A stretch of DNA of 64,000 nucleotides from Pseudomonas frederiksbergensis (lineage in GTDB: Bacteria > Pseudomonadota > Gammaproteobacteria > Pseudomonadales > Pseudomonadaceae): assembly GCF_900105495.1 (NCBI RefSeq), contig NZ_FNTF01000002.1:3323501-3387500 (forward strand). The letters are read 5' to 3'. Within the stretch, counting starts at the first letter, position 1; each line of letters begins with the position of its first letter. Position numbers and translations under genes: made by a program. The notes under the pieces are model-generated. The model worked only from the letters and a program-made list of their open reading frames with translations, ran no database searches and was not told the DNA's origin. Of the stretch, positions 1,437 to 35,525 are shown piece after piece.

Positions 1437-1603
1437 CGCGGGCCGTTGGAAGTTCGGAGGCTGGCGGATAAAGACCTGAGGGGCGCATTGGACTCCGGAG
1501 CGTGGATCTCTCCGCCCATGGCCAGGAACTGCGCGACTCGGGCGGCGAGTTCGTTGGCCACCGGCTGGCGCTCGTTGATGATGTTGAGGTGGTTGCTGAT
1601 CAT
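1433..1603 (-). CDS. 56-residue phage protein, four-base overlaps at both ends
   Basis: The ATG at 1603 overlaps the TGA of the exonuclease gene (ATGA), and its own TGA overlaps the GTG of the next gene (GTGA). These junctions are the main evidence that it is real and fix the start. The product begins MISNHLNIINERQPVANE and has no recognised domain. It is part of the tightly packed leftward operon and probably translationally coupled to the exonuclease. Confidence 0.55.
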   Translation of the reverse strand: MISNHLNIINERQPVANELAARVAQFLAMGGEIHAPESNAPLRSLSASLRTSNGPR

Positions 1604-3231
1604 GCGGCCACCTTTACCAGCCTCACGCCGGCCATGCTGAACTTGGAGCCCTGATTCGCGACAAGAGCATCGAGCGCTTCCCAGTTGACAGACAGAATCG
1701 ATAGAGGGGCCTGGCCGCAAGCCACGGCTTTGACCAGCACCTCAAGATCGAAGACCTCGGCCTGCATATTCACCGCTGGTGCCGTCACAGGTTTGGATGC
1801 CGCCTGATGCATTGTTGGCGCTGCTCTTACTGGCGCGGGTGTCACTACAGGTGCAGTTTCAACAACAGGCGCGACGGCCAATTTGGCCTTTTCATCGTCG
1901 GCGATCCGCTGCAGCTCTTCCTCACGAATTTGCTTCCGAGTGGCTTCGGCTTTCTCTTCCTCGGCTTTCTCATGCTCCGATATCCGAAATTTGATCAGCG
2001 TCACCAGGTCGTCATTGGCTTTTGTCACCAACTGCTGGATGTCGTTGAACAGGAACGCGTGGTCGGTGGCGAGCTCGGCCAGGCTGGTCAGGTTCAGACG
2101 AATGCAGTCAGCTGCCTGGCTCGCATCGATCTTTGCCCGGGCCAGCTCGGTATCAACAGCATCCTGCAGACTGGCGATGGTGCGCTTGTTTTTCATGGCG
2201 CCAGCAAAGTCAGCGGCCACGTTTGGAAGAACCACTTTGCCCAGGGTCTTGTTAATCGCGGCGATGTGATCAATCAGCGCCTGTTCGGCCTTCTGTTTTA
2301 TGTTGGTCTTCACCAGCAGTTCCTGCGCCTTCACCAGCTTGTCTACTTTCAGGCGAGTTTCGCGGGCATGTGCCGAGACGCGATCCAGCGACGAGAACAG
2401 CTCGTCGATGGTTGCGGTTTGCGACAGCGCCTGCTTCTTCGCCGCGGCGACGGCTTCTTCCACATCGCCGCACCATTTCACGGCCTTCTTGGCGTCCGCG
2501 AAGTCCTGGTCCGTTTGCAGCGTGGTTTTCACCGAGTCGATGACCGCCAGTGCTGATTGCTCGAACAGCTTGAGGTTGCTCGCGGTAACCATGCCGGTGA
2601 GTTCGATACGCAGCGCTGGCAGTTCGTCGGGCGCCTTGCCGACGACGATCGAAGGGGCATCAGCCACTACATGGACGCCGAGGTCCGCTTCGAACTGCTT
2701 CCAGCCTTCGATCAACTGTTCGGCGCGGCCAGCGACCGGACGGTATTCCATGCTGACGAAGTTCTCGGCGGTGCCGTCTGAGCAAACGAAGATCACTCGC
2801 TCGGCGCCGCTGACCAGCAGCTGTTGCTCAAGTTGCCAGTAATAGTGCGGGGCCAGGTTTTCAGCCTTCACCTGGGCGACCAGCGATTCGTTCCAGAGCT
2901 TGTGCTCAAACAACGTCTCGCCGAGCATCGTCGCGCCGTCCATTGAGGCCAGCAGATTTCCCAGCGTGCCAACAACCGGATACAGCTCTTCGCCGATCAT
3001 CGCTTCAACCAGCGGACGGGCTGATGCTTCAGTGGCGTGGCCTTTGTCGAAGATGTACTGCTGCGACGGCGTGACGTCCGGGGTGATGCCGGTCTTCTTC
3101 AGGGTCAGCAGGTCGGTGCGGGTCTGGTATTTCGAGGCACCCTTCATTGCAGGGGCTTCGGAGGCGGTGAAGTGTTGAGCGCGCAGTGCGTGCCACTCGG
3201 CGGAGCCTTGAGCTACGTTGTGAATTTTCAT
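1600..3231 (-). CDS. YqaJ/lambda-type viral recombinase exonuclease
   Basis: 543 residues. The N-terminal 200 residues fit the YqaJ family of 5'-3' double-strand exonucleases. They open with GSAEWHALRAQHFTASEAP, then an acidic/lysine core (SMDGAT, then FEHKLWNESLVAQVKAENL) and YYWQLEQQLLVSGAERVIFV, matching the D...ExK catalytic pattern. The C-terminal half is long, helical and charged (EEEKAEATRKQIREEELQRI), longer than lambda Exo, and may hold partner contacts. It follows a RecT-type gene with an ATGA overlap, so the pair forms a two-component recombinase: resection plus annealing for phage recombination or concatemer formation. Confidence 0.85.
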   Translation of the reverse strand: MKIHNVAQGSAEWHALRAQHFTASEAPAMKGASKYQTRTDLLTLKKTGITPDVTPSQQYIFDKGHATEASARPLVEAMIGEELYPVVGTLGNLLASMDGATMLGETLFEHKLWNESLVAQVKAENLAPHYYWQLEQQLLVSGAERVIFVCSDGTAENFVSMEYRPVAGRAEQLIEGWKQFEADLGVHVVADAPSIVVGKAPDELPALRIELTGMVTASNLKLFEQSALAVIDSVKTTLQTDQDFADAKKAVKWCGDVEEAVAAAKKQALSQTATIDELFSSLDRVSAHARETRLKVDKLVKAQELLVKTNIKQKAEQALIDHIAAINKTLGKVVLPNVAADFAGAMKNKRTIASLQDAVDTELARAKIDASQAADCIRLNLTSLAELATDHAFLFNDIQQLVTKANDDLVTLIKFRISEHEKAEEEKAEATRKQIREEELQRIADDEKAKLAVAPVVETAPVVTPAPVRAAPTMHQAASKPVTAPAVNMQAEVFDLEVLVKAVACGQAPLSILSVNWEALDALVANQGSKFSMAGVRLVKVAA

Positions 3232-3980
3232 GCTGCTTCACCTTCGAGTGGCTTGAGCTGGTTAATGGAGTCGATTTGTTCGGCGGTCAGCGTGTATTTG
3301 CTGCTGACAGTGGCGATCACTTGCTCGGGAGACTTGCCGCCCTCGATCGCCTTGCGCCATTTCGGCAGGTTCTCTGTCAGCTTCTCGTCGGGATACGCCT
3401 CTAGCTCCGTCGGTGCCTCGATCTTGGCTACGCTGGCCAGAGGCTGGCCGTTCTCGCGCTCTTTCGGCATGTCCTGCAGCTCTTCGGCGACCGGCATACC
3501 GCGCAACACATCAGGGAATACGTCACGCAAGGCGAAGGCCCGGGCGCGCATCTGGCGCATGCGTTTCGGGTGCTGTGTCCACGGGCCTTGTTTGCCCATC
3601 AGGCCTGCCGTTTTTGCATCTTCCATGTCGAAGGTGCGAGCCTGCTCGTCTTCGCCGCGGCGCTTCACCCGGCAAGTGGCCGTGTGGCCGTCGTCGCTCT
3701 CGTAGACGTACTCGCACAGAGGCGAGCCGCGCACCAAGGCGATCACTGCGTCGCCCCAAAGCGCTGGCCGCCCGTTGATGACCGCGATGTTCTGCATTGC
3801 TTGCAGCGGTTGCAGGCCCAGCTCCAAACCCCACTGGATTGCAACCAAGATGTTGCCCGGGTTGCCGAGGAACTCTTTCGGCACGATGGTCGACTTGGCC
3901 AGGATGTCGGCGAAAGCCATTGCCTCGGTAAGCGACGACGGCGTCAGGCTGAAGCTTTGCTTTGTGGTTAATTCGGACAC
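3228..3980 (-). CDS. RecT-family single-strand annealing protein
   Basis: 250 residues from the GTG at 3980, chosen because an AAGGA box lies just upstream; the frame stays open further but that part looks non-coding. Family-typical blocks are LTEAMAFADILAKSTIVPKE, FLGNPGNILVAIQWGLELG, QPLQAMQNIAVINGRPALWG and the C-terminal KRMRQMRARAFALRDVFPD. RecT proteins coat resected DNA and anneal complementary strands. Its stop overlaps the exonuclease start (ATGA), which supports joint production with the YqaJ nuclease. The last 50 residues are acidic and variable. Confidence 0.85.
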   Translation of the reverse strand: MSELTTKQSFSLTPSSLTEAMAFADILAKSTIVPKEFLGNPGNILVAIQWGLELGLQPLQAMQNIAVINGRPALWGDAVIALVRGSPLCEYVYESDDGHTATCRVKRRGEDEQARTFDMEDAKTAGLMGKQGPWTQHPKRMRQMRARAFALRDVFPDVLRGMPVAEELQDMPKERENGQPLASVAKIEAPTELEAYPDEKLTENLPKWRKAIEGGKSPEQVIATVSSKYTLTAEQIDSINQLKPLEGEAA

Positions 3981-4024
3981 GAGCGAATCCTTGCCGCGAT
4001 GCACGCAGCGTTTGAAGTTGTGGG

Positions 4025-4141
4025 TTATTGAGTGAGCTGCGAGCAGTAGGCGCTTGCCAGCATCCAGGCGGTAAAGAAGAGCAGGGCGATGGCTGAGCCG
4101 CGCCAGAACCAAAAGCGCTTTGCGCGCTGATAGGCAGTCAT
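4025..4141 (-). CDS. 38-residue single-span membrane protein
   Basis: The ATG at 4141 overlaps the TGA of the previous gene (ATGA), and the frame ends in TAA at 4025-4027. The product starts MTAYQRAKRFWFWRG and continues with one hydrophobic stretch (SAIALLFFTAWMLASAYC). A basic N-terminus before a single span predicts an inner-membrane peptide with its N-terminus in the cytoplasm. The operon overlap is the main evidence for expression. Function unknown. Confidence 0.5.
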   Translation of the reverse strand: MTAYQRAKRFWFWRGSAIALLFFTAWMLASAYCSQLTQ

Positions 4142-5758: not shown

Positions 5759-6523
5759 TCAGTCATAAATGCCGTAGCTGAACTCGTCTTCGTCGCAATC
5801 GACGAGGATCTTTGAAGAGCCGAAGTAGAGTGCGGCGACCATCTTTTCGAACTCAGAACGGAATTTCAGGGTTTGGCTGATCTTCTCGTTGTCGATCTTC
5901 GCGGCGTACACCGATCCGACCTCGCGACCCTTTTCGTCTCGGTCTTTCCCGTGGCGGTCGAAGCTGATGTGGATCGCGTTGTCGAGCAGGTATTCGCTGC
6001 GCTCAGAGCTTCTGGAGTAGCTCGTAATCCCGTGATCCTTGGGTTTCTTATCGAAGTAGATGTGCAGGCCGCCGTAGTCGGATGCTTGGAAGCGGATGTC
6101 GGGGGCCTCCCAGTGTTCTTCTGCAGCGGACTCTTTGTGGTCCTCTACAAAAGCCTCCAGGAGAGCCTGTAAACTGATCACTTCAGGCATCGCGTCTTTG
6201 TTCAGAACCTCATCGATCTGCGTCTGCGCCAAGCGCACCATGTCAGCCTCGACGCCGCTGTTTTCCCACTTTTCTTTCAGTGCAGCGGCGATCATGGCGT
6301 TGTAGCGGGTCAGCTCAAAGATTTCAGTGAGATTGGCTGGCAGAGCGGCCTTGATTGCCTCTTCGACCTGCTTGCCCATGTCGCCATAACGACCGAAGCA
6401 GTTGTCGACCACGTTCGTGAACATCTTCTTGACGTGCTCGTCGATGATTTCGACCGGCTTGTCGCTGTCCGCAAAAGCAGTGACGCGCTGAGCGAGCAGC
6501 GCTTGAAGTGTTTGTTCGCTCAT
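5759..6523 (-). CDS. Hypothetical phage early protein
   Basis: 254 residues, acidic (near the end DCDEDEFSYGIYD). The N-terminal half is helical (MSEQTLQALLAQRVTAFADS, then DNCFGRYGDMGKQVEEAIKA); the C-terminal half looks like mixed alpha/beta. Start ATG 6523 has an ACGGAG box. It is among the first genes after the leftward promoter, before the recombination genes. I do not recognise a catalytic motif; proteins of this position often modify host nucleases or recombination, but that is only analogy. Confidence 0.65.
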   Translation of the reverse strand: MSEQTLQALLAQRVTAFADSDKPVEIIDEHVKKMFTNVVDNCFGRYGDMGKQVEEAIKAALPANLTEIFELTRYNAMIAAALKEKWENSGVEADMVRLAQTQIDEVLNKDAMPEVISLQALLEAFVEDHKESAAEEHWEAPDIRFQASDYGGLHIYFDKKPKDHGITSYSRSSERSEYLLDNAIHISFDRHGKDRDEKGREVGSVYAAKIDNEKISQTLKFRSEFEKMVAALYFGSSKILVDCDEDEFSYGIYD

Positions 6524-6696
6524 TTGATGCTCCGTGCTTGATTGGTTGATTTCCCGTCTGGCCCTGTCGCCAAGGCCAGCCAGTGAAATCTGTTGTCTCC
6601 ACCACGCGCATCGCCGGATTCATATCTCTGGCCGTCGTCGCACATTTCGTGTTCGGTGCTGGTACGGCTGGCTTGCGTGGTTTCGCGTGCATTCAT
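6520..6696 (-). CDS. Possible 58-residue leader gene of the leftward operon
   Basis: The frame ends in TGA overlapping the ATG of the next gene (ATGA at 6520-6523), the same coupling used throughout this operon. The likeliest start is ATG 6696, but no strong ribosome site is seen; ATG 6647 is an alternative. The product is polar and probably disordered. Kept at low confidence because composition alone would not support it. Confidence 0.3.
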   Translation of the reverse strand: MNARETTQASRTSTEHEMCDDGQRYESGDARGGDNRFHWLALATGPDGKSTNQARSIK

Positions 6697-6869
6697 GTGG
6701 AAGGCACGGCCAGTTCCAGAGCTGGCGTGGCATCGACTATTTGTTGCTCGCACTTACCGGCTGAAACCCGGGGTAGTCGATGGCGAGGATCCTGAGCTGT
6801 TAAAGAGCGGCGGATCTCTCGACCCTTCGCAGCTGGTCCCGATGTGGGGACTGGCTTGCGATGGAGTGA

Positions 6870-6898
6870 ACATTACTAGCGATAATATTGCTCGTCAA
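6870..6898 (-). promoter_or_regulatory. Leftward early promoter (PL-like)
   Basis: On the minus strand TTGACG (6893-6898) and TAATGT (6870-6875) are separated by exactly 17 bp. It points into the leftward early operon, and two repressor-type half sites lie just upstream. Confidence 0.65.
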
Positions 6899-6903
6899 GA
6901 CCG

Positions 6904-6931
6904 CAGGTAATAAAATAAATCACAGGTAATA
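6904..6931. promoter_or_regulatory. Putative repressor/Cro operator pair at PL
   Basis: CAGGTAATA occurs at 6904-6912 and 6923-6931, 19 bp apart, and the first is preceded by AAGACCG. The same AAGACCGCAAGTAATA block occurs at the rightward promoter (10955-10970). This suggests that CI and Cro bind both regions, as in lambda OL and OR. Confidence 0.55.
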
Positions 6932-6955
6932 AAAAGCCCGCTCAGTGGCGGGCTT
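6931..6955 (-). terminator. Intrinsic terminator after the DUF1654 gene
   Basis: Stem AAGCCCGC/GCGGGCTT with a six-base loop, followed on the minus strand by five T. It lies directly after the stop of 6959..7210 and isolates that gene from PL. Confidence 0.75.
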
Positions 6956-6958
6956 ATT

Positions 6959-7210
6959 TCACGCTTCGCAGTACTGTCGCCATCCGATCCTGACGGCGCC
7001 GCCGTCCAGATGCTCAATGCGCACGCCGCTCGTTTCTTCGATTTCCTGGATTACCTGTCGCCAAGCCTCTGGGCTTTCATCATCGTTGCGGGCGACGGTG
7101 ACGACCTGGACCTTCTGAACGCCTGGAGCAGCTATCAGACGCTGGATGCGCCGACCTACCAATTCATATGAGTCTCTGGCATGCGAAGCGGGTGACGCGA
7201 TTTGTGACAT
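6959..7210 (-). CDS. DUF1654 family protein, SOS-box controlled
   Basis: 83 residues from ATG 7210, preceded by AAGGAGC; upstream in-frame starts would lie inside the promoter. The core YELVGRRIQRLIAAPGVQKV, then ESPEAWRQVIQEIEETSGV is the DUF1654 signature, a family almost confined to Pseudomonas and its phages. A LexA-type box (7231-7246) sits just upstream of the ribosome site, so the gene is expected to be induced with DNA damage, i.e. when the prophage is. It has its own terminator. Biochemical role unknown. Confidence 0.8.
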   Translation of the reverse strand: MSQIASPASHARDSYELVGRRIQRLIAAPGVQKVQVVTVARNDDESPEAWRQVIQEIEETSGVRIEHLDGGAVRIGWRQYCEA

Positions 7211-7230
7211 GGAAAAGCTCCTTGCTATAA

Positions 7231-7246
7231 CTGTATGTATGTACAG
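7231..7246. promoter_or_regulatory. LexA (SOS) box before the DUF1654 gene
   Basis: CTGTATGTATGTACAG, matching the gamma-proteobacterial CTGT-N8-ACAG consensus, with flanking AA and TA. It lies 20 bp upstream of the start codon, where bound LexA would cover the promoter. Confidence 0.8.
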
Positions 7247-7328
7247 TATTGTTCTTGCCATATTTTGGCAAGAAACATTGGCCTATTTGTTTCGGTAGCC
7301 GGGGTTTGCGAGCTTTTTCTCCAGGCAC

Positions 7329-7352
7329 AAAAAAGCCCGCACTTGGCGGGCT
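7329..7352 (-). terminator. Hairpin terminator, mainly leftward
   Basis: GCCCGC (7335-7340) pairs with GCGGGC (7346-7351), followed on the minus strand by six T. One of two clear terminators in the gene-poor interval 7211-7845. Confidence 0.65.
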
Positions 7353-7465
7353 CTATTCAGATTCTTTTATTCGTTCATGGCGCACGGCCACCATTGGTCG
7401 CCCAGAGTGCCATCATACTGAACGGTCCCTGTAACCTGACCCATAGATCACCACTAGGGGCTCCA

Positions 7466-7555
7466 ATGAGAGAGGCACAGCGAAGACTGGCCATGACAGC
7501 TTGGCGCGAGCTATTCACACTGGCCGGAAGCCAAATGGACGCAGAGGTTAAGTAA
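7466..7555 (+). CDS. Possible 29-residue peptide
   Basis: ATG at 7466 with AGGGG six bases upstream, ending TAA at 7553-7555. Product begins MREAQRRLAMTAWRELFTLA, amphipathic helical. Too short for a family call; the ribosome site is its best support. It lies in a 635-bp interval (7211-7845) that otherwise holds only hairpins and one other tiny frame. Confidence 0.3.
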   Translation: MREAQRRLAMTAWRELFTLAGSQMDAEVK

Positions 7556-7583
7556 CTTCGGTCTGTTGAGGCGGGCTGACGCT

Positions 7584-7688
7584 ATGGAACGCGCCGACCT
7601 TATCACCAGCGACGAGTGGATAAAGCTTGTCCAGCAGGCGGGGGCATTGCTTGCCAGCACCGCAGAGTGCATGGGCGGGCCAGGGTAG
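7584..7688 (+). CDS. Possible 34-residue peptide
   Basis: ATG 7584 to TAG 7688, product beginning MERADLITSDEWIKLVQQAG. It follows 7466..7555 on the same strand and is closed by a strong hairpin at 7697-7722. The ribosome site is weak. Confidence 0.25.
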   Translation: MERADLITSDEWIKLVQQAGALLASTAECMGGPG

Positions 7689-7696
7689 GGTAGAAC

Positions 7697-7722
7697 GAAA
7701 AAGCCCGGCGCTAGGCCGGGCT
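7697..7722. terminator. Strong hairpin, bidirectional terminator
   Basis: AGCCCGG (7702-7708) pairs with CCGGGCT (7716-7722). There is a T run on the minus strand and a shorter T stretch on the plus strand. A related weaker hairpin follows at about 7801-7828, just beyond the end of the DUF3037 gene. Confidence 0.65.
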
Positions 7723-7845
7723 CTTTATGCACGTGGCCAAATCCCTTTGGCTGACTGCAGTGTGCTTGGTAGGTGTGACGAAGGTGTGACAGACGGATAC
7801 GAAAAGCCCGGTGCTGAGCTCAGGCTTTATACGGTAATGCCGCAT

Positions 7846-8676
7846 TCAATGGATGCTGAGAAGGTCTCGGCCTACCAACGAAGACATCAAATTGAAGTAT
7901 TCCGTATGTTCAGCCTTAGACTCTAAGTTGAAAATTCGGTCGCTATATTCTTCGGCTAGGTTGATGTGAGGAAGCACATCTTTTTCTCTTGATGCACTTG
8001 CGGAGTACACAAAGTATCTAGCTGAGTCCTCGCCAAGAAACTTTCTTCCCTCCATGAAAGTCATTACTTTCATTGTTGTTTCTTTGAACTTGGCGCTTGG
8101 ATCATTCAAGTTAAAATCAATGGCTTCTGTAATGTGGAATTTACCATTTTTTAAAAGAAAGTCAGCCGTAAAGCCTGACTTGTCACTAAGGGGGTAATTG
8201 TGAACCACCTTGTGCCTGCTTAGATCGTCGTAGTCTTTTCCTAGCATATCCATTCCGTCGAATATGTTTTTTACATAGGTATGAATTCTTGAGCTTCTAA
8301 CAGTTTTCTCTTTAGATGCATACGGCTTCACTAGTTCATTGAACAAGTTTGAAACTCTTTTTTCATATTGATTAATGTCATCAATTATAAAATAGGAAAT
8401 TTCGCCCATAAATGAATTAGAAGAGTCAAACGTCTTTAGGAAACTAATCGCCTGTTCTGAAGTGGTCGCCCAAGCTGCAATCGACTCAAGACCTTTTTTA
8501 AGGGAGTCCAAATCAGCTACGCTTGAGGTGCCATCAATTACCCGTACTTTCGCGGATGCGTTCAGTACACGAACATCGACCTTTTGCTCTGTAAAGACGA
8601 CCAGGCCAACATTGACTACCTCGCCTCGCTTAGGGTCAGGCATGTACTTAACTATTGAATATTTAAAGGTAATCAC
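7846..8676 (-). CDS. DUF3037 family protein, partner of HipA-like kinase
   Basis: 276 residues from GTG 8676, chosen because a perfect AGGAGG lies eight bases upstream. The N-terminus FKYSIVKYMPDPKRGEVVNV followed by GLVVF is the hallmark of DUF3037, a family repeatedly found next to HipA-like kinases. The rest is mixed alpha/beta with no membrane segment or signal peptide. It starts 12 bp after the kinase stop, so the two are one operon. The DNA is visibly more AT-rich than the phage core. Role unknown; the fixed partnership suggests a two-gene toxin-antitoxin, regulatory or phage-defence unit. Confidence 0.75.
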   Translation of the reverse strand: MITFKYSIVKYMPDPKRGEVVNVGLVVFTEQKVDVRVLNASAKVRVIDGTSSVADLDSLKKGLESIAAWATTSEQAISFLKTFDSSNSFMGEISYFIIDDINQYEKRVSNLFNELVKPYASKEKTVRSSRIHTYVKNIFDGMDMLGKDYDDLSRHKVVHNYPLSDKSGFTADFLLKNGKFHITEAIDFNLNDPSAKFKETTMKVMTFMEGRKFLGEDSARYFVYSASASREKDVLPHINLAEEYSDRIFNLESKAEHTEYFNLMSSLVGRDLLSIH

Positions 8677-8687
8677 TTTATTACCTC

Positions 8688-9515
8688 CTACAATAATTTC
8701 ATTAAAGAGTCGATTCTGTCGTGTCGCGCCTGCGAGCTCCACCAATCAATATATGACTTTCGATCATGTTTTGACATCCAAGACGATGGAAAGTTCTCTA
8801 GAATAGTCGAAACATCCTCACTGCTTATAACTCGAATCTCTTCAAGGCAAGCTACCGCTTCTGCGCGAATATAGTTCTTTGAAACGTTAAGCATGGAGAA
8901 TATTAGCTGTGTCTTAGTGCTGGGGTGGGTAGCCTCAAAGCCAGAGTGTCCAACTTCAAAGCAAGCTTTGCTAAAGTCAAACGCCAGCGCAATAAGAGAA
9001 TCGCCAAAACTGGTGCGCCATAAGTAGTTGTTCCAGTGGCGATCGACATTGTTTACAAATAAATCGAAGGCATACAATCTGCTAAAAAAGCTTTGCAGGT
9101 TTGTAACCTTTACGTTTCCGCGTAAAACGTTGTCGATGAATGTAGGGTAGTCAATTTTGCTATTGCCATTTATTACGCCTCCCTCCCACGCTGATCCGAA
9201 AGCCAACTCTCCAGTCGGCAATTTGATTAAGGAATAGGACGGAGTGGGGATCACCACGCGGTAAGCGAGCTCATAGCAAAAGAGCTCTGACGCAGGGATT
9301 TTGCCAGCGCCATCGCTGGTCGTTTTTACCGCGTAGTGTTTTCCGTCACGACCTTCGACGATAGTCTTGAGGTCGGCAGTGCCCAGAGTACTTGTGAAGG
9401 TCGTAATCGCATCCACAGGAATTAATGTCTTTTGATACCGAGCCTCTACTGGCAGTCGCTTTCCCGGCTCTTGGGTTGGATCGCTGTCATTGCCAGGGAG
9501 AATCTCATCGGTCAT
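8688..9515 (-). CDS. HipA-like protein kinase
   Basis: 275 residues from ATG 9515 (GGACGG upstream; a TTG at 9527 is an alternative). Visible kinase-type blocks: a glycine-containing N-lobe (VEGRDGKHYAVKTTSDGAGK) with the lysine of AVK; a catalytic loop FDLFVNNVDRHWNNYL with the D-R-H...N arrangement; and AFDFSKACFE as the metal-binding DFx segment. The length and lack of a HipB-like partner set it apart from classical HipA; it fits the shorter HipA-like group that pairs with DUF3037. It lies between the leftward promoter region and the repressor operon, a usual place for genes expressed in the lysogen. Confidence 0.75.
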   Translation of the reverse strand: MTDEILPGNDSDPTQEPGKRLPVEARYQKTLIPVDAITTFTSTLGTADLKTIVEGRDGKHYAVKTTSDGAGKIPASELFCYELAYRVVIPTPSYSLIKLPTGELAFGSAWEGGVINGNSKIDYPTFIDNVLRGNVKVTNLQSFFSRLYAFDLFVNNVDRHWNNYLWRTSFGDSLIALAFDFSKACFEVGHSGFEATHPSTKTQLIFSMLNVSKNYIRAEAVACLEEIRVISSEDVSTILENFPSSWMSKHDRKSYIDWWSSQARHDRIDSLMKLL

Positions 9516-9734
9516 GGGTCCGTCCAAAAATATGATGAATGCTATTAAGGTGGAATTGCTTGCAGTCTAGTTGAGACTGGCACCGCTGAGCCAGCCCTAT
9601 CGATGGGCTCGGAAAACCCTTCAGAAAAAAGACGAAGGTTCACGAACAGTTAAAGCTTTCCACGTACGCAATCCGTCATGCCTTTACCTCGCCGGCGTAA
9701 GCAGTCAGCCGATCCCGCCACATCAGTTCATCAT

Positions 9735-9923
9735 TCAGCATGCCATCGTAATTCGTAGCGCTACCGCAGCCTCAAGCAGCTTATTCGCCTGGTTCGAGAC
9801 AGCCGCCGCCAAGACATCATTTCCGGCGTCTTTCAGCATTGCCGCCAAATCGAGCAGTTTGCCAATCTCGATCTCAACGACGCGAACGGATTCAGTTATC
9901 TGGTATTGAACTGAGTGCGCCAT
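9735..9923 (-). CDS. Small helical protein, third gene of the repressor operon
   Basis: 62 residues from ATG 9923 with a GAGGG site. MAHSVQYQITESVRVVEIEI then a long helix (GKLLDLAAMLKDAGNDVLAA). No recognised family. It follows the repressor and a similar small gene on the same strand, so it is probably made in the lysogen. Confidence 0.5.
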   Translation of the reverse strand: MAHSVQYQITESVRVVEIEIGKLLDLAAMLKDAGNDVLAAAVSNQANKLLEAAVALRITMAC

Positions 9924-9957
9924 GCCATCAACCCTCGTTCCAGATCCAAGACGGTAT

Positions 9958-10158
9958 TCAATGAAGAACCCTGCGACTTTCGCCAATCCTGATCCGATCT
10001 AGCGCACGGATTAACGCATCCAAGGCATCGAGGAGGGCTTTCGCCTCGGTCTCTCGACCATCTCCCCAAAGGCGCTCAGCCATTTTGTTCAGTGCCTGGA
10101 TCGATCTCTCGATATCTGCAGCACTTGCTGCAGTGTCGGCTGGCCGCTTCTTTGGCAT
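9958..10158 (-). CDS. Small helical protein directly after the repressor gene
   Basis: 66 residues. The ATG at 10158 lies two bases after the repressor TGA, so translation is likely coupled. Predicted all-alpha (SAADIERSIQALNKMAERL, then EAKALLDALDALIRALDRI). Its pattern resembles 9735..9923, and the two may form a pair. Function unknown. Confidence 0.55.
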   Translation of the reverse strand: MPKKRPADTAASAADIERSIQALNKMAERLWGDGRETEAKALLDALDALIRALDRIRIGESRRVLH

Positions 10159-10160
10159 TG

Positions 10161-10895
10161 TCAGAACTTCTGCAACGCTCGCACGACGACGCCCACGATC
10201 CGGCATTGCTCGTCAAACGGTTCAATCGGGTACCCAGGGTTCAACGGCTTCAGAAACAGCTTGCCGCCGTCATTGACCAGCTTCTTGAAGGTCGCTTCGT
10301 TGCTATCCGGCAGCTTGGCGATCACTAGCTTCCCGGGGGCAGCCTCTGCTTCCGTATCGACCAGAATTAGAGTCCCTTCGGTAATGCTTTGCCCAACCGG
10401 TGAAGTCATCGAGTCGCCTTTGACCTCAAGCCAAAACGCCGCACCTTTTGAGTCGTACTCGGAAAACTCATAGCGATCCGAGAAGCCGGCCGGGTAGGGC
10501 TCCACTGCTTCGGCCCATGCGCCAGCGGCGACCCAACTGATCACCGGGTAGCGGTAGGACTCAATGGGCTGACGGGATTCGCCGACGTTGGATTCTGAAT
10601 AGCCAGAAATCCCCTTGATCTCTTTGGCCAGGCGCTCGCTGAAATCGGAAACCGGTACTTGGAGGTAGCGAGCGAACACTGCGGCGGCTTCAATATTTAG
10701 GGCATTTCGCCCGGTCAAGTAATGGCTTGCAGCGCTCTGGCTGTTCGCCTTCAAGCCCTCGATCGCAATCTTCTCTTGGCTGATCCCAAGAGCCTTCTTT
10801 TTTGCCTTGTAAATGGCATTCAGCGCGGAACACTCAGCCGCCTCTATCTCAGATAGGGGGCGTTTTTTGGCTGGCTTTTTATCAGGAATTTTCAT
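10161..10895 (-). CDS. CI-type prophage repressor, HTH plus S24 self-cleavage domain
   Basis: 244 residues. N-terminal XRE-type HTH about residues 22-75 (ALGISQEKIAIEGLKANSQS, then AASHYLTGRNALN). The C-terminal S24/LexA-like domain has the Ala-Gly cleavage site in SWVAAGAWAEA, the nucleophile in VKGDSMTS and a likely general-base lysine in EATFKKLVNDGG. RecA-stimulated cleavage would induce the prophage. It is transcribed leftward, divergent from the Cro gene, with shared operators between. It heads a three-gene operon with two small helical proteins. Confidence 0.9.
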   Translation of the reverse strand: MKIPDKKPAKKRPLSEIEAAECSALNAIYKAKKKALGISQEKIAIEGLKANSQSAASHYLTGRNALNIEAAAVFARYLQVPVSDFSERLAKEIKGISGYSESNVGESRQPIESYRYPVISWVAAGAWAEAVEPYPAGFSDRYEFSEYDSKGAAFWLEVKGDSMTSPVGQSITEGTLILVDTEAEAAPGKLVIAKLPDSNEATFKKLVNDGGKLFLKPLNPGYPIEPFDEQCRIVGVVVRALQKF

Positions 10896-10902
10896 CGGCC
10901 AA

Positions 10903-10973
10903 CTGTATTACTTCGGGTATTAACATTCTAAGACCGCCGATATTGACTTAATAAAGACCGCAAGTAATACTTG
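10903..10973. promoter_or_regulatory. Rightward promoter PR with repressor/Cro operators
   Basis: The rightward promoter has TTGACT (10943-10948), 17 bp, AATACT (10966-10971). A perfect palindrome CAAGTAATACTTG (10961-10973) covers the -10. A related site, CCGAAGTAATACAG on the minus strand, lies at 10903-10916 next to the repressor start. The left promoter carries CAGGTAATA sites of the same family. Occupation of 10961-10973 would shut PR; the 10903 site probably controls repressor synthesis. Confidence 0.65.
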
Positions 10974-11000
10974 TGCATGCATCGCGCAGGAGAATCCCGT

Positions 11001-11201
11001 ATGCAACGCACACCACTTAAAGAGTTCGTGACAAAGGTCGGGCAGATCAAGGCTGCTGCCGCTCTTGGGCTTACCCAAGGCGGAATCAGCAAAGCAATTC
11101 GTGCAGATCGGGTCGTCTACGTGATCGAGCTCGAGGACGGATCTTTCAAGGCTGAAGAGATCAAGCCATTTCCCGGGCAAGTCCAGCGCCTTGCCAGCTA
11201 A
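11001..11201 (+). CDS. Cro-like repressor
   Basis: 66 residues from ATG 11001, chosen because GCAGGAG lies just upstream. MQRTPLKEFVTKVGQIKAAA then LGLTQGGISKAIRADR is a compact HTH of the lambda Cro type: helix 2 around QIKAAAALG, recognition helix around QGGISKAI. It ends in a basic tail (KPFPGQVQRLAS). First gene of the rightward operon, divergent from the CI-type gene. Confidence 0.8.
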   Translation: MQRTPLKEFVTKVGQIKAAAALGLTQGGISKAIRADRVVYVIELEDGSFKAEEIKPFPGQVQRLAS

Positions 11202-11493
11202 CCAACAACTCGCTGCGAGCTGAGCGAGGCAGTAGCCCGTTCGAAGCCGCGCAACTCTTCACGGTCAAGCCTCCTTCTAAGAGGGCTGGCAACTCGCTCA
11301 AACGCAGGCCAAAGCTTGAGCTGAGAAGACAGGGGAAGGGTGGAAGCAAGGGCGACCACCATGCAACAAAGGACGGATATCTCACCTTGCAATTCGGAAT
11401 TAGAGGTCACGGATGCGTCCCTGATCAGTTGATGAACGAATGATCGCCTTGTTGGCATTACGCCGCCACGGAAACAGAAACGAGGTTTTACGA

Positions 11494-34793: not shown

Positions 34794-35525
34794 TTACTGC
34801 TTAATTGAAGGTTCTTGTGCCGGAGTGTGGATGGCAGGAGATACCGGAATATTTGGGACCTTCTCAATCATTTGCAAAGTTTGTTTTTGTTCTTTTTCTA
34901 GTTTTGTTTTGTATGTGCTAGCGCCTACATAGATTCCGAAAGTAATAACTGAATAGAATCCTATGGTGACTGTAAGTAACGAATATTTACGAATGCGCCT
35001 GTAACCGATTTCTCCTTTCTTGACCAGGGTCCACGTACTTTTTAAGATTGGTGCGGCTTTCGATCTTATTTCATTGCAAGAGATTAAAACGCTCTCAAAA
35101 TCCCCTTTAGCTGAGAACTCCCTTGCCTTTGAGATTGCTTTCATTAGTTCGGATTCTGGCGTTGTTGCATCCTCAGAAATATGATCTGCGTTCAACCTTA
35201 ACTGAATCCTAGTGAGATTTTCGATTGCTCGTGAAAATGCATCTCGTGTTTCCTTATACCATTCAATATGAAGCGTGTTTTTTTCCTGAGGGGTATGAAA
35301 TTTCTCCGCATCGAATGTATTGGTAACACGTACAAGCTCTTGTGCAGCTGAGATGTACTCGGCTATTTCGTTTCTAAGGCCATCTATCCAAGCAAGTCTA
35401 AATTCGGATACTTTATTTTCTTTTGAGCTGACCATGTTCATGAAAGAAAAAAAGCCACTTAGAAGTGCAGCAGTAATTACGCCGAAGGCAACATAAACTG
35501 TTGCTGGGATTGAGGTTATGTCCAT
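34794..35525 (-). CDS. Two-span membrane protein, cargo between K and I
   Basis: 243 residues. Span 1 about residues 9-30 (VYVAFGVITAALLSGFFSFM), a long helical cytoplasmic part (residues 38-170, AWIDGLRNEIAEYISAAQEL), span 2 about 183-203 (SLLTVTIGFYSVITFGIYVG) and a tail. The DNA is clearly AT-richer than the surrounding tail genes, and the orientation is opposite. This fits a lysogenic-conversion or exclusion gene. The general layout (short span, coiled middle, span) resembles hypothetical proteins often found in mobile DNA; no function known. Confidence 0.65.
   Translation of the reverse strand: MDITSIPATVYVAFGVITAALLSGFFSFMNMVSSKENKVSEFRLAWIDGLRNEIAEYISAAQELVRVTNTFDAEKFHTPQEKNTLHIEWYKETRDAFSRAIENLTRIQLRLNADHISEDATTPESELMKAISKAREFSAKGDFESVLISCNEIRSKAAPILKSTWTLVKKGEIGYRRIRKYSLLTVTIGFYSVITFGIYVGASTYKTKLEKEQKQTLQMIEKVPNIPVSPAIHTPAQEPSIKQ

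What the first reader, a model, noticed from the sequence alone, without database searches (positions are those of the whole stretch)
7846..9515. HipA-like kinase plus DUF3037 as lysogeny cargo
The kinase shows AVK, DRH...N and DFS elements, and DUF3037 follows 12 bp later with a perfect AGGAGG. The pair is known to co-occur widely, but its role is to my knowledge undescribed. It sits between the leftward early promoter region and the repressor operon, is AT-richer than the phage core and is followed by stacked terminators. That is the typical place of superinfection-exclusion or toxin-antitoxin modules.
Basis: partly seen in the sequence, partly recalled or inferred. Interest (0 to 1): 0.75.

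Follow-up and report, generated by a model that had tools for sequence, protein, structure and literature searches.

The report
Prophage-borne HipA kinase defence pair
A dormant virus in a Pseudomonas chromosome carries, right behind its master repressor gene, a two-gene kinase toxin and partner of a recently described kind that most likely protects its host from other viruses; the kind is known, but its recurrent place behind phage repressors and the nuclease-like shape of the partner are worth testing.

Summary
At 8688-9515 (-) lies a HipA_2-family kinase with an intact catalytic set, followed after 11 bp by a DUF3037 protein (7846-8676, GTG, AGGAGG). The pair sits between a candidate OL (6897-6913) and cI (10161-10895), facing like cI: the rexAB slot of lambda. 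That its role is undescribed is out of date: the pair fits PADLOC candidate PDC-M66, published as HipAD/DS-6 (kinase residue needed for defence, PMC13092281) and beside retron Sda1 (kinase needed; deleting DUF3037 toxic, PMC12548924). I file it as a new member of that kind. Added here: kinase directly before DUF3037 on one strand in 98 of 98 loci holding both; a CI-like gene within 1 kb upstream in 45 of 66 distinct loci, within 1 kb downstream in 0 of 66; related prophages carry other cargo in the slot; the C-terminal half of DUF3037 models as a restriction-endonuclease-like fold without an apparent (D/E)xK. Best mechanism: toxin-antitoxin-type abortive infection, DUF3037 restraining the kinase and, by inference only, sensing DNA. 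Target and trigger are unknown; nothing was tested at the bench.

The parts
8688..9515 (-). HipA-like kinase gene (275 aa), putative toxin/effector
7846..8676 (-). DUF3037 gene (276 aa, GTG start), putative antitoxin/sensor; two modelled domains, about 1-115 and 130-270
8684..8689 (-). AGGAGG ribosome-binding site of the DUF3037 gene, overlapping the kinase stop
   Evidence: read in sequence
9553..9569 (+). weak operator-like 17-mer (4 mismatches) just upstream of the kinase start; may be chance
   Evidence: one of three 4-mismatch sites in the window; random sequence gave 0-2 sites with up to 4 mismatches per 64 kb in 10 runs
9735..9986 (-). small ORF between cI and the cargo; conserved right flank of the cargo slot
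   Evidence: found in 18 of 396 genus genomes at E 1e-15; flank comparison
9958..10206 (-). second small ORF behind cI
   Evidence: conserved in relatives
10161..10895 (-). CI-like repressor (Peptidase_S24 + weak HTH_3)
   Evidence: Pfam Peptidase_S24 94.1 bits; PHROG repressor
10905..10970 (.). candidate OR: three operator-like sites (10905-10921, 10930-10945, 10954-10970); the middle one has 3 mismatches
10971..11201 (+). Cro-like gene (ORF from its first start codon)
   Evidence: Pfam Cro 78.5 bits
6897..6913 (.). candidate OL operator, 2 mismatches to the seed site at 10954-10970
7694..7732 (-). strong leftward terminator hairpin; part of the conserved left flank 7693-7827
   Evidence: fold -20.3 kcal/mol, z -4.05; flank comparison
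7324..7362 (-). second strong leftward terminator hairpin
   Evidence: fold -15 kcal/mol, z -3.59
7797..7833 (-). weak leftward terminator-like hairpin directly behind the DUF3037 gene
   Evidence: fold -9.9 kcal/mol, z -1.65

Best explanation
A prophage-borne HipAD (PDC-M66) module: a HipA-like Ser/Thr kinase toxin with a DUF3037 partner that restrains it, expressed in the lysogen from the rexAB slot behind cI and acting by abortive infection against superinfecting phage. Shown here by sequence: the intact kinase active site, the two-gene order, the slot, and the exchange of cargo in that slot. Shown by others on homologues, not on this pair: the kinase is needed for defence, and deleting DUF3037 is toxic. 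Inferred: that the kinase stops growth by phosphorylating a host protein, as HipA and HipT do with tRNA synthetases; that DUF3037 senses DNA with its nuclease-like C-terminal domain; and that transcription comes from the repressor promoter.
For: HipA_2 and DUF3037 over Pfam cut-offs. At E 0.01 PDC-M66B matches 26 of 26 and PDC-M66A 23 of 27 representatives scanned. Same strand with the kinase first in 98 of 98 loci that hold both; 69 of 73 distinct DUF3037 proteins have a kinase ORF in the locus; 37 of these 69 pairs overlap by 4 bp and 60 of 69 lie within -20 to +27 bp. Pairwise distances of the two proteins correlate at r 0.957 (63 pairs; largest of 1000 permutations 0.105) and 0.941 (50 non-redundant; 0.151). 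CI-like gene within 1 kb upstream in 45 of 66 distinct loci, within 1 kb downstream in 0 of 66. E. coli prophage at icd: cro, cI, kinase, DUF3037, kil, gam, bet, exo, the lambda layout. Published: PMC13092281 (passages and the first third of the reference list) and PMC12548924 (passages).
Against: No experiment on this pair. The window kinase scores only 13.6 bits (E 0.0071) with PDC-M66A and more, 26.1 bits, with PDC-M03A; PDC-M03A models also match up to 19 of 27 representatives. DS-6B is described with DUF3037 and DUF1829; no DUF1829 match in 26 members at E 0.01. The E. coli-type and other distant members are only about 30% identical to the window's. No consensus promoter was found between cI and the kinase and transcription was not tested. 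The distance correlation is partly shared ancestry. No HTH or other DNA-binding Pfam domain was found in DUF3037 at E 0.1.
Confidence: 0.75

Rival explanations
1. A plain toxin-antitoxin addiction module that stabilises the prophage in the lysogen, with no real phage defence.
For: Same toxin/antitoxin logic; a PIN_10 + DUF433 + HTH_66 set and an HTH_3-containing set occupy the same slot in other loci.
Against: Two published homologous pairs protect against phage (PMC12548924, PMC13092281); the slot behind cI holds rexAB in lambda and the RexAB-type defence genes of P. putida prophage P1 (PMC12894663).
Confidence: 0.12
2. DUF3037 is the effector: an active PD-(D/E)XK-like nuclease that cuts phage DNA, and the kinase only switches it on.
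For: C-terminal fold like PspGI on DNA, Can2/Cdn1, BstEII; polar residues D/E172 68/68, H181 65/68, E184 64/68, D187 67/68.
Against: No canonical (D/E)xK is apparent: strand 179-187 reads H-x-T/S. In the pair beside retron Sda1 deleting DUF3037 is toxic and the authors read the kinase as the toxin (PMC12548924). Foldseek alone gave no PDB match at E 1e-3 or better.
Confidence: 0.08
3. The pair regulates the lysogeny decision (for example by acting on CI or Cro) rather than superinfection.
For: Tight linkage to cI; a weak operator-like site lies at 9553-9569.
Against: In the 7 loci where a match to the window's CI was found, it is only 33-47% identical, and related prophages lack the pair and carry other cargo.
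Confidence: 0.04

Closest known systems
HipAD / DS-6 (Brenes and Laub 2025, title only; DefensePredictor, PMC13092281)
   Same: HipA-family kinase plus DUF3037 partner; the 2025 title speaks of E. coli prophages
   Different: DS-6B is described with a DUF1829 domain, not detected here by Pfam; the DS-6 sequence was not at hand for comparison; other host and phage
PDC-M66 (PADLOC candidate) and the HipA/DUF3037 genes beside retron Sda1 (PMC12548924)
   Same: same two families; there the kinase is needed for defence and DUF3037 deletion is toxic
   Different: none of the seven neighbouring ORFs scanned with the pair is a reverse transcriptase; the window kinase is a weak match to PDC-M66A
lambda rexAB and P. 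putida RexABpp (PMC12894663)
   Same: same slot behind cI and same direction; in P1 also separated from cI by two further genes
   Different: no membrane effector here; kinase and DUF3037 instead
HipBA and HipBST toxin-antitoxin systems
   Different: no HipB-like HTH partner found; toxin gene first; closest solved folds are CtkA, then PI4KII

Membership tests
HipAD / PDC-M66 | HipA-family kinase with intact catalytic residues | tested here: met
   HipA_2 over cut-off (HipA_C is below its own cut-off); K64, E77, D158, N163, D180 in 65-66 of 66
HipAD / PDC-M66 | adjacent DUF3037 partner, kinase first | tested here: met
   DUF3037 over cut-off, 11 bp apart; PDC-M66B 51.9 bits
HipAD / PDC-M66 | kinase recognised by the PDC-M66A model | tested here: inconclusive
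   13.6 bits, E 0.0071; PDC-M03A scores 26.1 bits
HipAD / PDC-M66 | DUF1829 in the partner (as stated for DS-6B) | tested here: inconclusive
   0 of 26 by Pfam at E 0.01; a search of 149 genomes for DUF1829 rang in no genome and no control, so says nothing
HipAD / PDC-M66 | kinase toxicity neutralised by DUF3037; protection against phage | not testable with these tools
   published for homologues only (PMC12548924, PMC13092281)
HipBA / HipBST | HipB-like HTH antitoxin as the partner | tested here: not met
   no HTH match in the DUF3037 protein at E 0.1
HipBA / HipBST | HipA N-terminal subdomain or a HipS partner | tested here: inconclusive
   HipA chains align from residue 64 to 149 onward, depending on the entry; DUF3037 residues before about 119-128 were not covered by the structural matches
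lambda RexAB | membrane effector RexB plus RexA-like sensor | tested here: not met
   the two genes are a kinase and DUF3037
lambda RexAB | place between OL and cI, same direction as cI | tested here: met
   against the lambda record; operators are by sequence repeat only
PD-(D/E)XK nuclease fold (DUF3037 C-terminal domain) | restriction-endonuclease-like fold | tested here: met
PD-(D/E)XK nuclease fold (DUF3037 C-terminal domain) | catalytic D ... (D/E)xK | tested here: inconclusive
   acidic residue at 172 in 68/68, but H-x-T/S where (D/E)xK is expected by strand order; no residue-by-residue superposition available

The most novel reading that the evidence does not exclude
DUF3037 is a DNA-reading antitoxin built on a catalytically altered restriction-endonuclease domain: it holds the kinase silent and lets go when it meets foreign or replicating phage DNA. 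The slot behind cI would then be a general interchangeable defence socket of lambda-like phages, in which RexAB, HipAD, PDC-M24-like and PIN-type modules replace one another while keeping a common plan: DNA-reading partner plus toxic effector.
Probability: 0.3. Interest if true: 0.65.

Novelty: new member of a known kind. Interest (0 to 1): 0.42.

Why it matters
It places a newly described defence kind in a precise, recurrent spot of phage genomes, next to the lysogeny switch, which makes discovery by position possible. If the nuclease-like half of DUF3037 is the phage sensor, it gives a concrete answer to how a HipA-type toxin is triggered by infection, which the passages that I read leave open.

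Tried and rejected
tblastn of both proteins, and of the E. coli-type DUF3037, against 50,697 phage records gave nothing at E 1e-5. That is not absence from phages: both window proteins match PHROG families of unknown function (phrog_3162, phrog_5137) and 63 IMG/VR loci were found. NCBIfam gave no match. PDB by single sequence gave nothing useful; by profile DUF3037 gave only unconvincing matches, best an interferon chain at E 0.0028, and the kinase's best match, HipT(Lp) at E 0.0034, is followed by a xylanase at 0.0057. Below-cut-off Pfam matches such as TcdB_N (14.2 bits, cut-off 27) were taken as chance. Comparison of DUF3037 with the DUF1828 cargo protein of L136 found no relation, though a viral DUF1828 protein is rank 9 (E 0.012) in the viral fold library, where the four matches at E 1e-3 or better include none of known function. 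The DUF1829 search rang nowhere, controls included.

I tested whether the 280-aa + 147-aa pair of L133 is RexAB. Size, four hydrophobic stretches and place fit, but no sequence relation to lambda RexA or RexB was found, so it is called RexAB-like in anatomy only; the P. putida RexA sequence was not at hand.

Empty sites: L132 (48 bp), L139 (22 bp) and L141 (17 bp) between the same two flanks looked like clean proof of insertion, but the ORFs to their left look chromosomal by eye (a permease-like protein in L132; naming from recall), so I do not count them as empty prophage sites, although L132 also has a CI-like end beside the small ORFs. The 15-nt repeat around the cargo (7640-7654 and 9549-9563) was put aside as chance-level. 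Promoter of the pair's own: none found between cI and the kinase; 3 promoter-like sites in the region against 3.9 in shuffles. A hairpin in the gap at 9600-9645 is no better than shuffles (z 0.12). Rfam: nothing in 6400-11300. Gerdes et al. 2021 on HipA families (PMC8262856; abstract, start of the introduction, term search) has no occurrence of CtkA or DUF in its main text. PMC6711988 uses 'DUF3037' for the plant RST1/human focadhesin domain (passage); I took this as another domain (recall, not tested).

Full report
What is there. Reading leftward from the control region, the window holds a Cro-like gene (10971-11201, +), three operator-like sites (10905-10970), a CI-like repressor (10161-10895, -), two small ORFs (9958-10206 and 9735-9986, -), the kinase (8688-9515, -), DUF3037 (7846-8676, -), leftward terminators, a DUF1654 gene (6959-7261, -) and a further operator-like site (6897-6913) in front of the next leftward gene. 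The 16-nt operator pattern occurs without mismatch twice in 64 kb, at 6897 and 10954; with up to 3 mismatches there are 5 matches against 2.35 expected, and 7 of 100 shuffles reach 5, so the weaker sites rest on their position. Phage lambda has the same order: OL, rexB, rexA, cI, OR, cro. So the pair occupies the rexAB slot. The genus is Pseudomonas: a genus-mate found is the P. peli record.

How widespread. By the DUF3037 profile 20 loci were found in genome contigs and 63 in viral contigs, by the kinase profile 15 in viral contigs, overlapping the former. Within the genus the protein is rare: 5 of 398 genomes at E 1e-10, the window's own included. In E. coli a close group is in 24 of 5426 genomes, 25 places, all chromosomal. 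tblastn found nothing in 50,697 phage records at E 1e-5. Of 102 loci with a DUF3037 ORF (the window counts four times, some contigs twice) there are 73 distinct proteins; 69 have a kinase ORF in the locus (in L038 only a fragment); the four without are L024, L076, L085 and L090. In the 98 loci with both, they lie on one strand with the kinase first. The two proteins' pairwise distances correlate closely, which fits a partnership but is inflated by shared ancestry.

Where it sits. A repressor profile, grown from the window's CI and the CI of an E. coli prophage through the ORFs of these same loci, finds a CI-like gene on the same strand within 1 kb upstream of the kinase in 45 of 66 distinct loci (median 135 bp; 38 of 48 viral, 7 of 18 genome loci), in 50 of 66 within 3 kb, and within 1 kb downstream of DUF3037 in 0 of 66; 13 of 66 have such a gene on the opposite strand upstream. 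Of the 16 without one within 3 kb, four have under 1.2 kb of upstream sequence. The 66 are the distinct DUF3037 proteins with a kinase, less the window's own and two (L004/L015 and L006) that the script skipped because their representative lay on the other strand; L015 does have Cro and CI matches upstream. Many of these phages are related, so the counts are not independent. Of 36 loci tested with window proteins (some the same contig), ten have a match other than the pair; in eight (L015, L028, L029, L032-L035, L041) these are Cro, CII, CI, replication, DUF1654, RecT or phrog_2600 relatives around the pair, and the CI matches among them are 33-43% identical to the window's. The annotated E. 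coli prophage at icd reads cro, cI, kinase, DUF3037, kil, gam, bet, exo, further on excisionase and integrase.

Exchange of cargo. The flanks of the window's cargo are the terminator block 7693-7827 and the small ORF 9735-9986. The ORF is in 21 places of 18 of 396 genus genomes; I fetched ten 10-kb regions. L133, from the same species, is a clear relative (RecT 98% over the 180 residues in the stretch, phrog_2600 51%, CII 58%, Cro 41%, both flanks) and carries a 280-aa protein plus a 147-aa hydrophobic protein in place of the kinase pair. L135 (phrog_2600 77%, part of a CII, both flanks) carries PIN_10, DUF433 (23.4 bits, just under its cut-off of 23.6) and HTH_66 proteins, a toxin-antitoxin-like set. 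L136 (right flank, only scraps of the left) carries a DUF1828 protein that matches PDC-M24B and a protein weakly like DUF6978 (below cut-off); L140 (both flanks, the left at 79%) an HTH_3 protein, a DUF6941 protein and an unassigned 148-aa protein; CI- and CII-like proteins are present in L136 and L140 taken together. L134, a second place in the window's own genome, holds a CBS-like protein (named by eye, no family search). L132, L139 and L141 have 48, 22 and 17 bp between the flanks but lie beside chromosomal-looking ORFs; L137 and L138 lack the left flank. P. putida prophage P1 has the same plan: CI-like PP_3896, two further genes, then rexA and rexB, both needed for defence against phages (PMC12894663; abstract and sections 7, 8 and 12 read).

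Known work. DS-6/HipAD: kinase plus DUF3037/DUF1829 protein, defence lost on mutating a kinase residue, complex and DNA contact predicted by AlphaFold3; the passages I read do not call the partner nuclease-like (PMC13092281). Retron Sda1: HipA deletion abolishes defence against Bas51, DUF3037 deletion is toxic, DUF3037 strongly associated with HipA-like genes, PDC-M66 by PADLOC; the authors see similarity of the DUF3037 C-terminus to a DNA-binding protein of type III-A1 retrons (PMC12548924, passages). I did not have the sequences of either system, so kinship with the window pair is by family and architecture.

Judgement. The finding is real, and it belongs to a known kind published in 2025-2026. 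New here are the member, the measured preference for the slot behind cI, the cargo exchange in this prophage group and the nuclease-like fold of the partner. The last is the most interesting and the least certain.

Noticed in passing
window 34794-35525 (-), within the AT-rich stretch 34.6-36.4 kb: A second low-GC island (43% GC at 35-36 kb) with a 243-aa ORF on the - strand, just before the + strand tail genes, and no Pfam or PHROG match; looks like another moron. Only fragments of 3-5% of the stretch match phage records.
   Followed up: partly
L136:2848-4205 (+): Two-gene cargo of a weakly DUF6978-like protein and a DUF1828 protein (PDC-M24B) beside the same small ORF; a possible further defence pair in the same slot.
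   Followed up: partly
L133:5251-6533 (-): 280-aa protein plus 147-aa hydrophobic protein in the slot; 129 relatives of the 280-aa protein at E 1e-3, and the names shown among the 120 listed are 'hypothetical' or 'uncharacterized'; no Pfam match.
   Followed up: partly
window 9958-10206 and relatives: 168 of 398 genus genomes match the region 9535-10895, and many of the listed matches cover only the DNA of this small ORF: a widespread small gene of unknown role.
   Followed up: no
window 7694-7816 and L132, L134: The terminator block behind the phage cargo is 92-93% identical to DNA beside a permease-like ORF in two genomes of the species (name by eye), suggesting past exchange between the prophage and that locus.
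   Followed up: no
window 1600-4112 (-): RecE-like exonuclease and RecT-like annealing genes downstream in the leftward early region.
   Followed up: no
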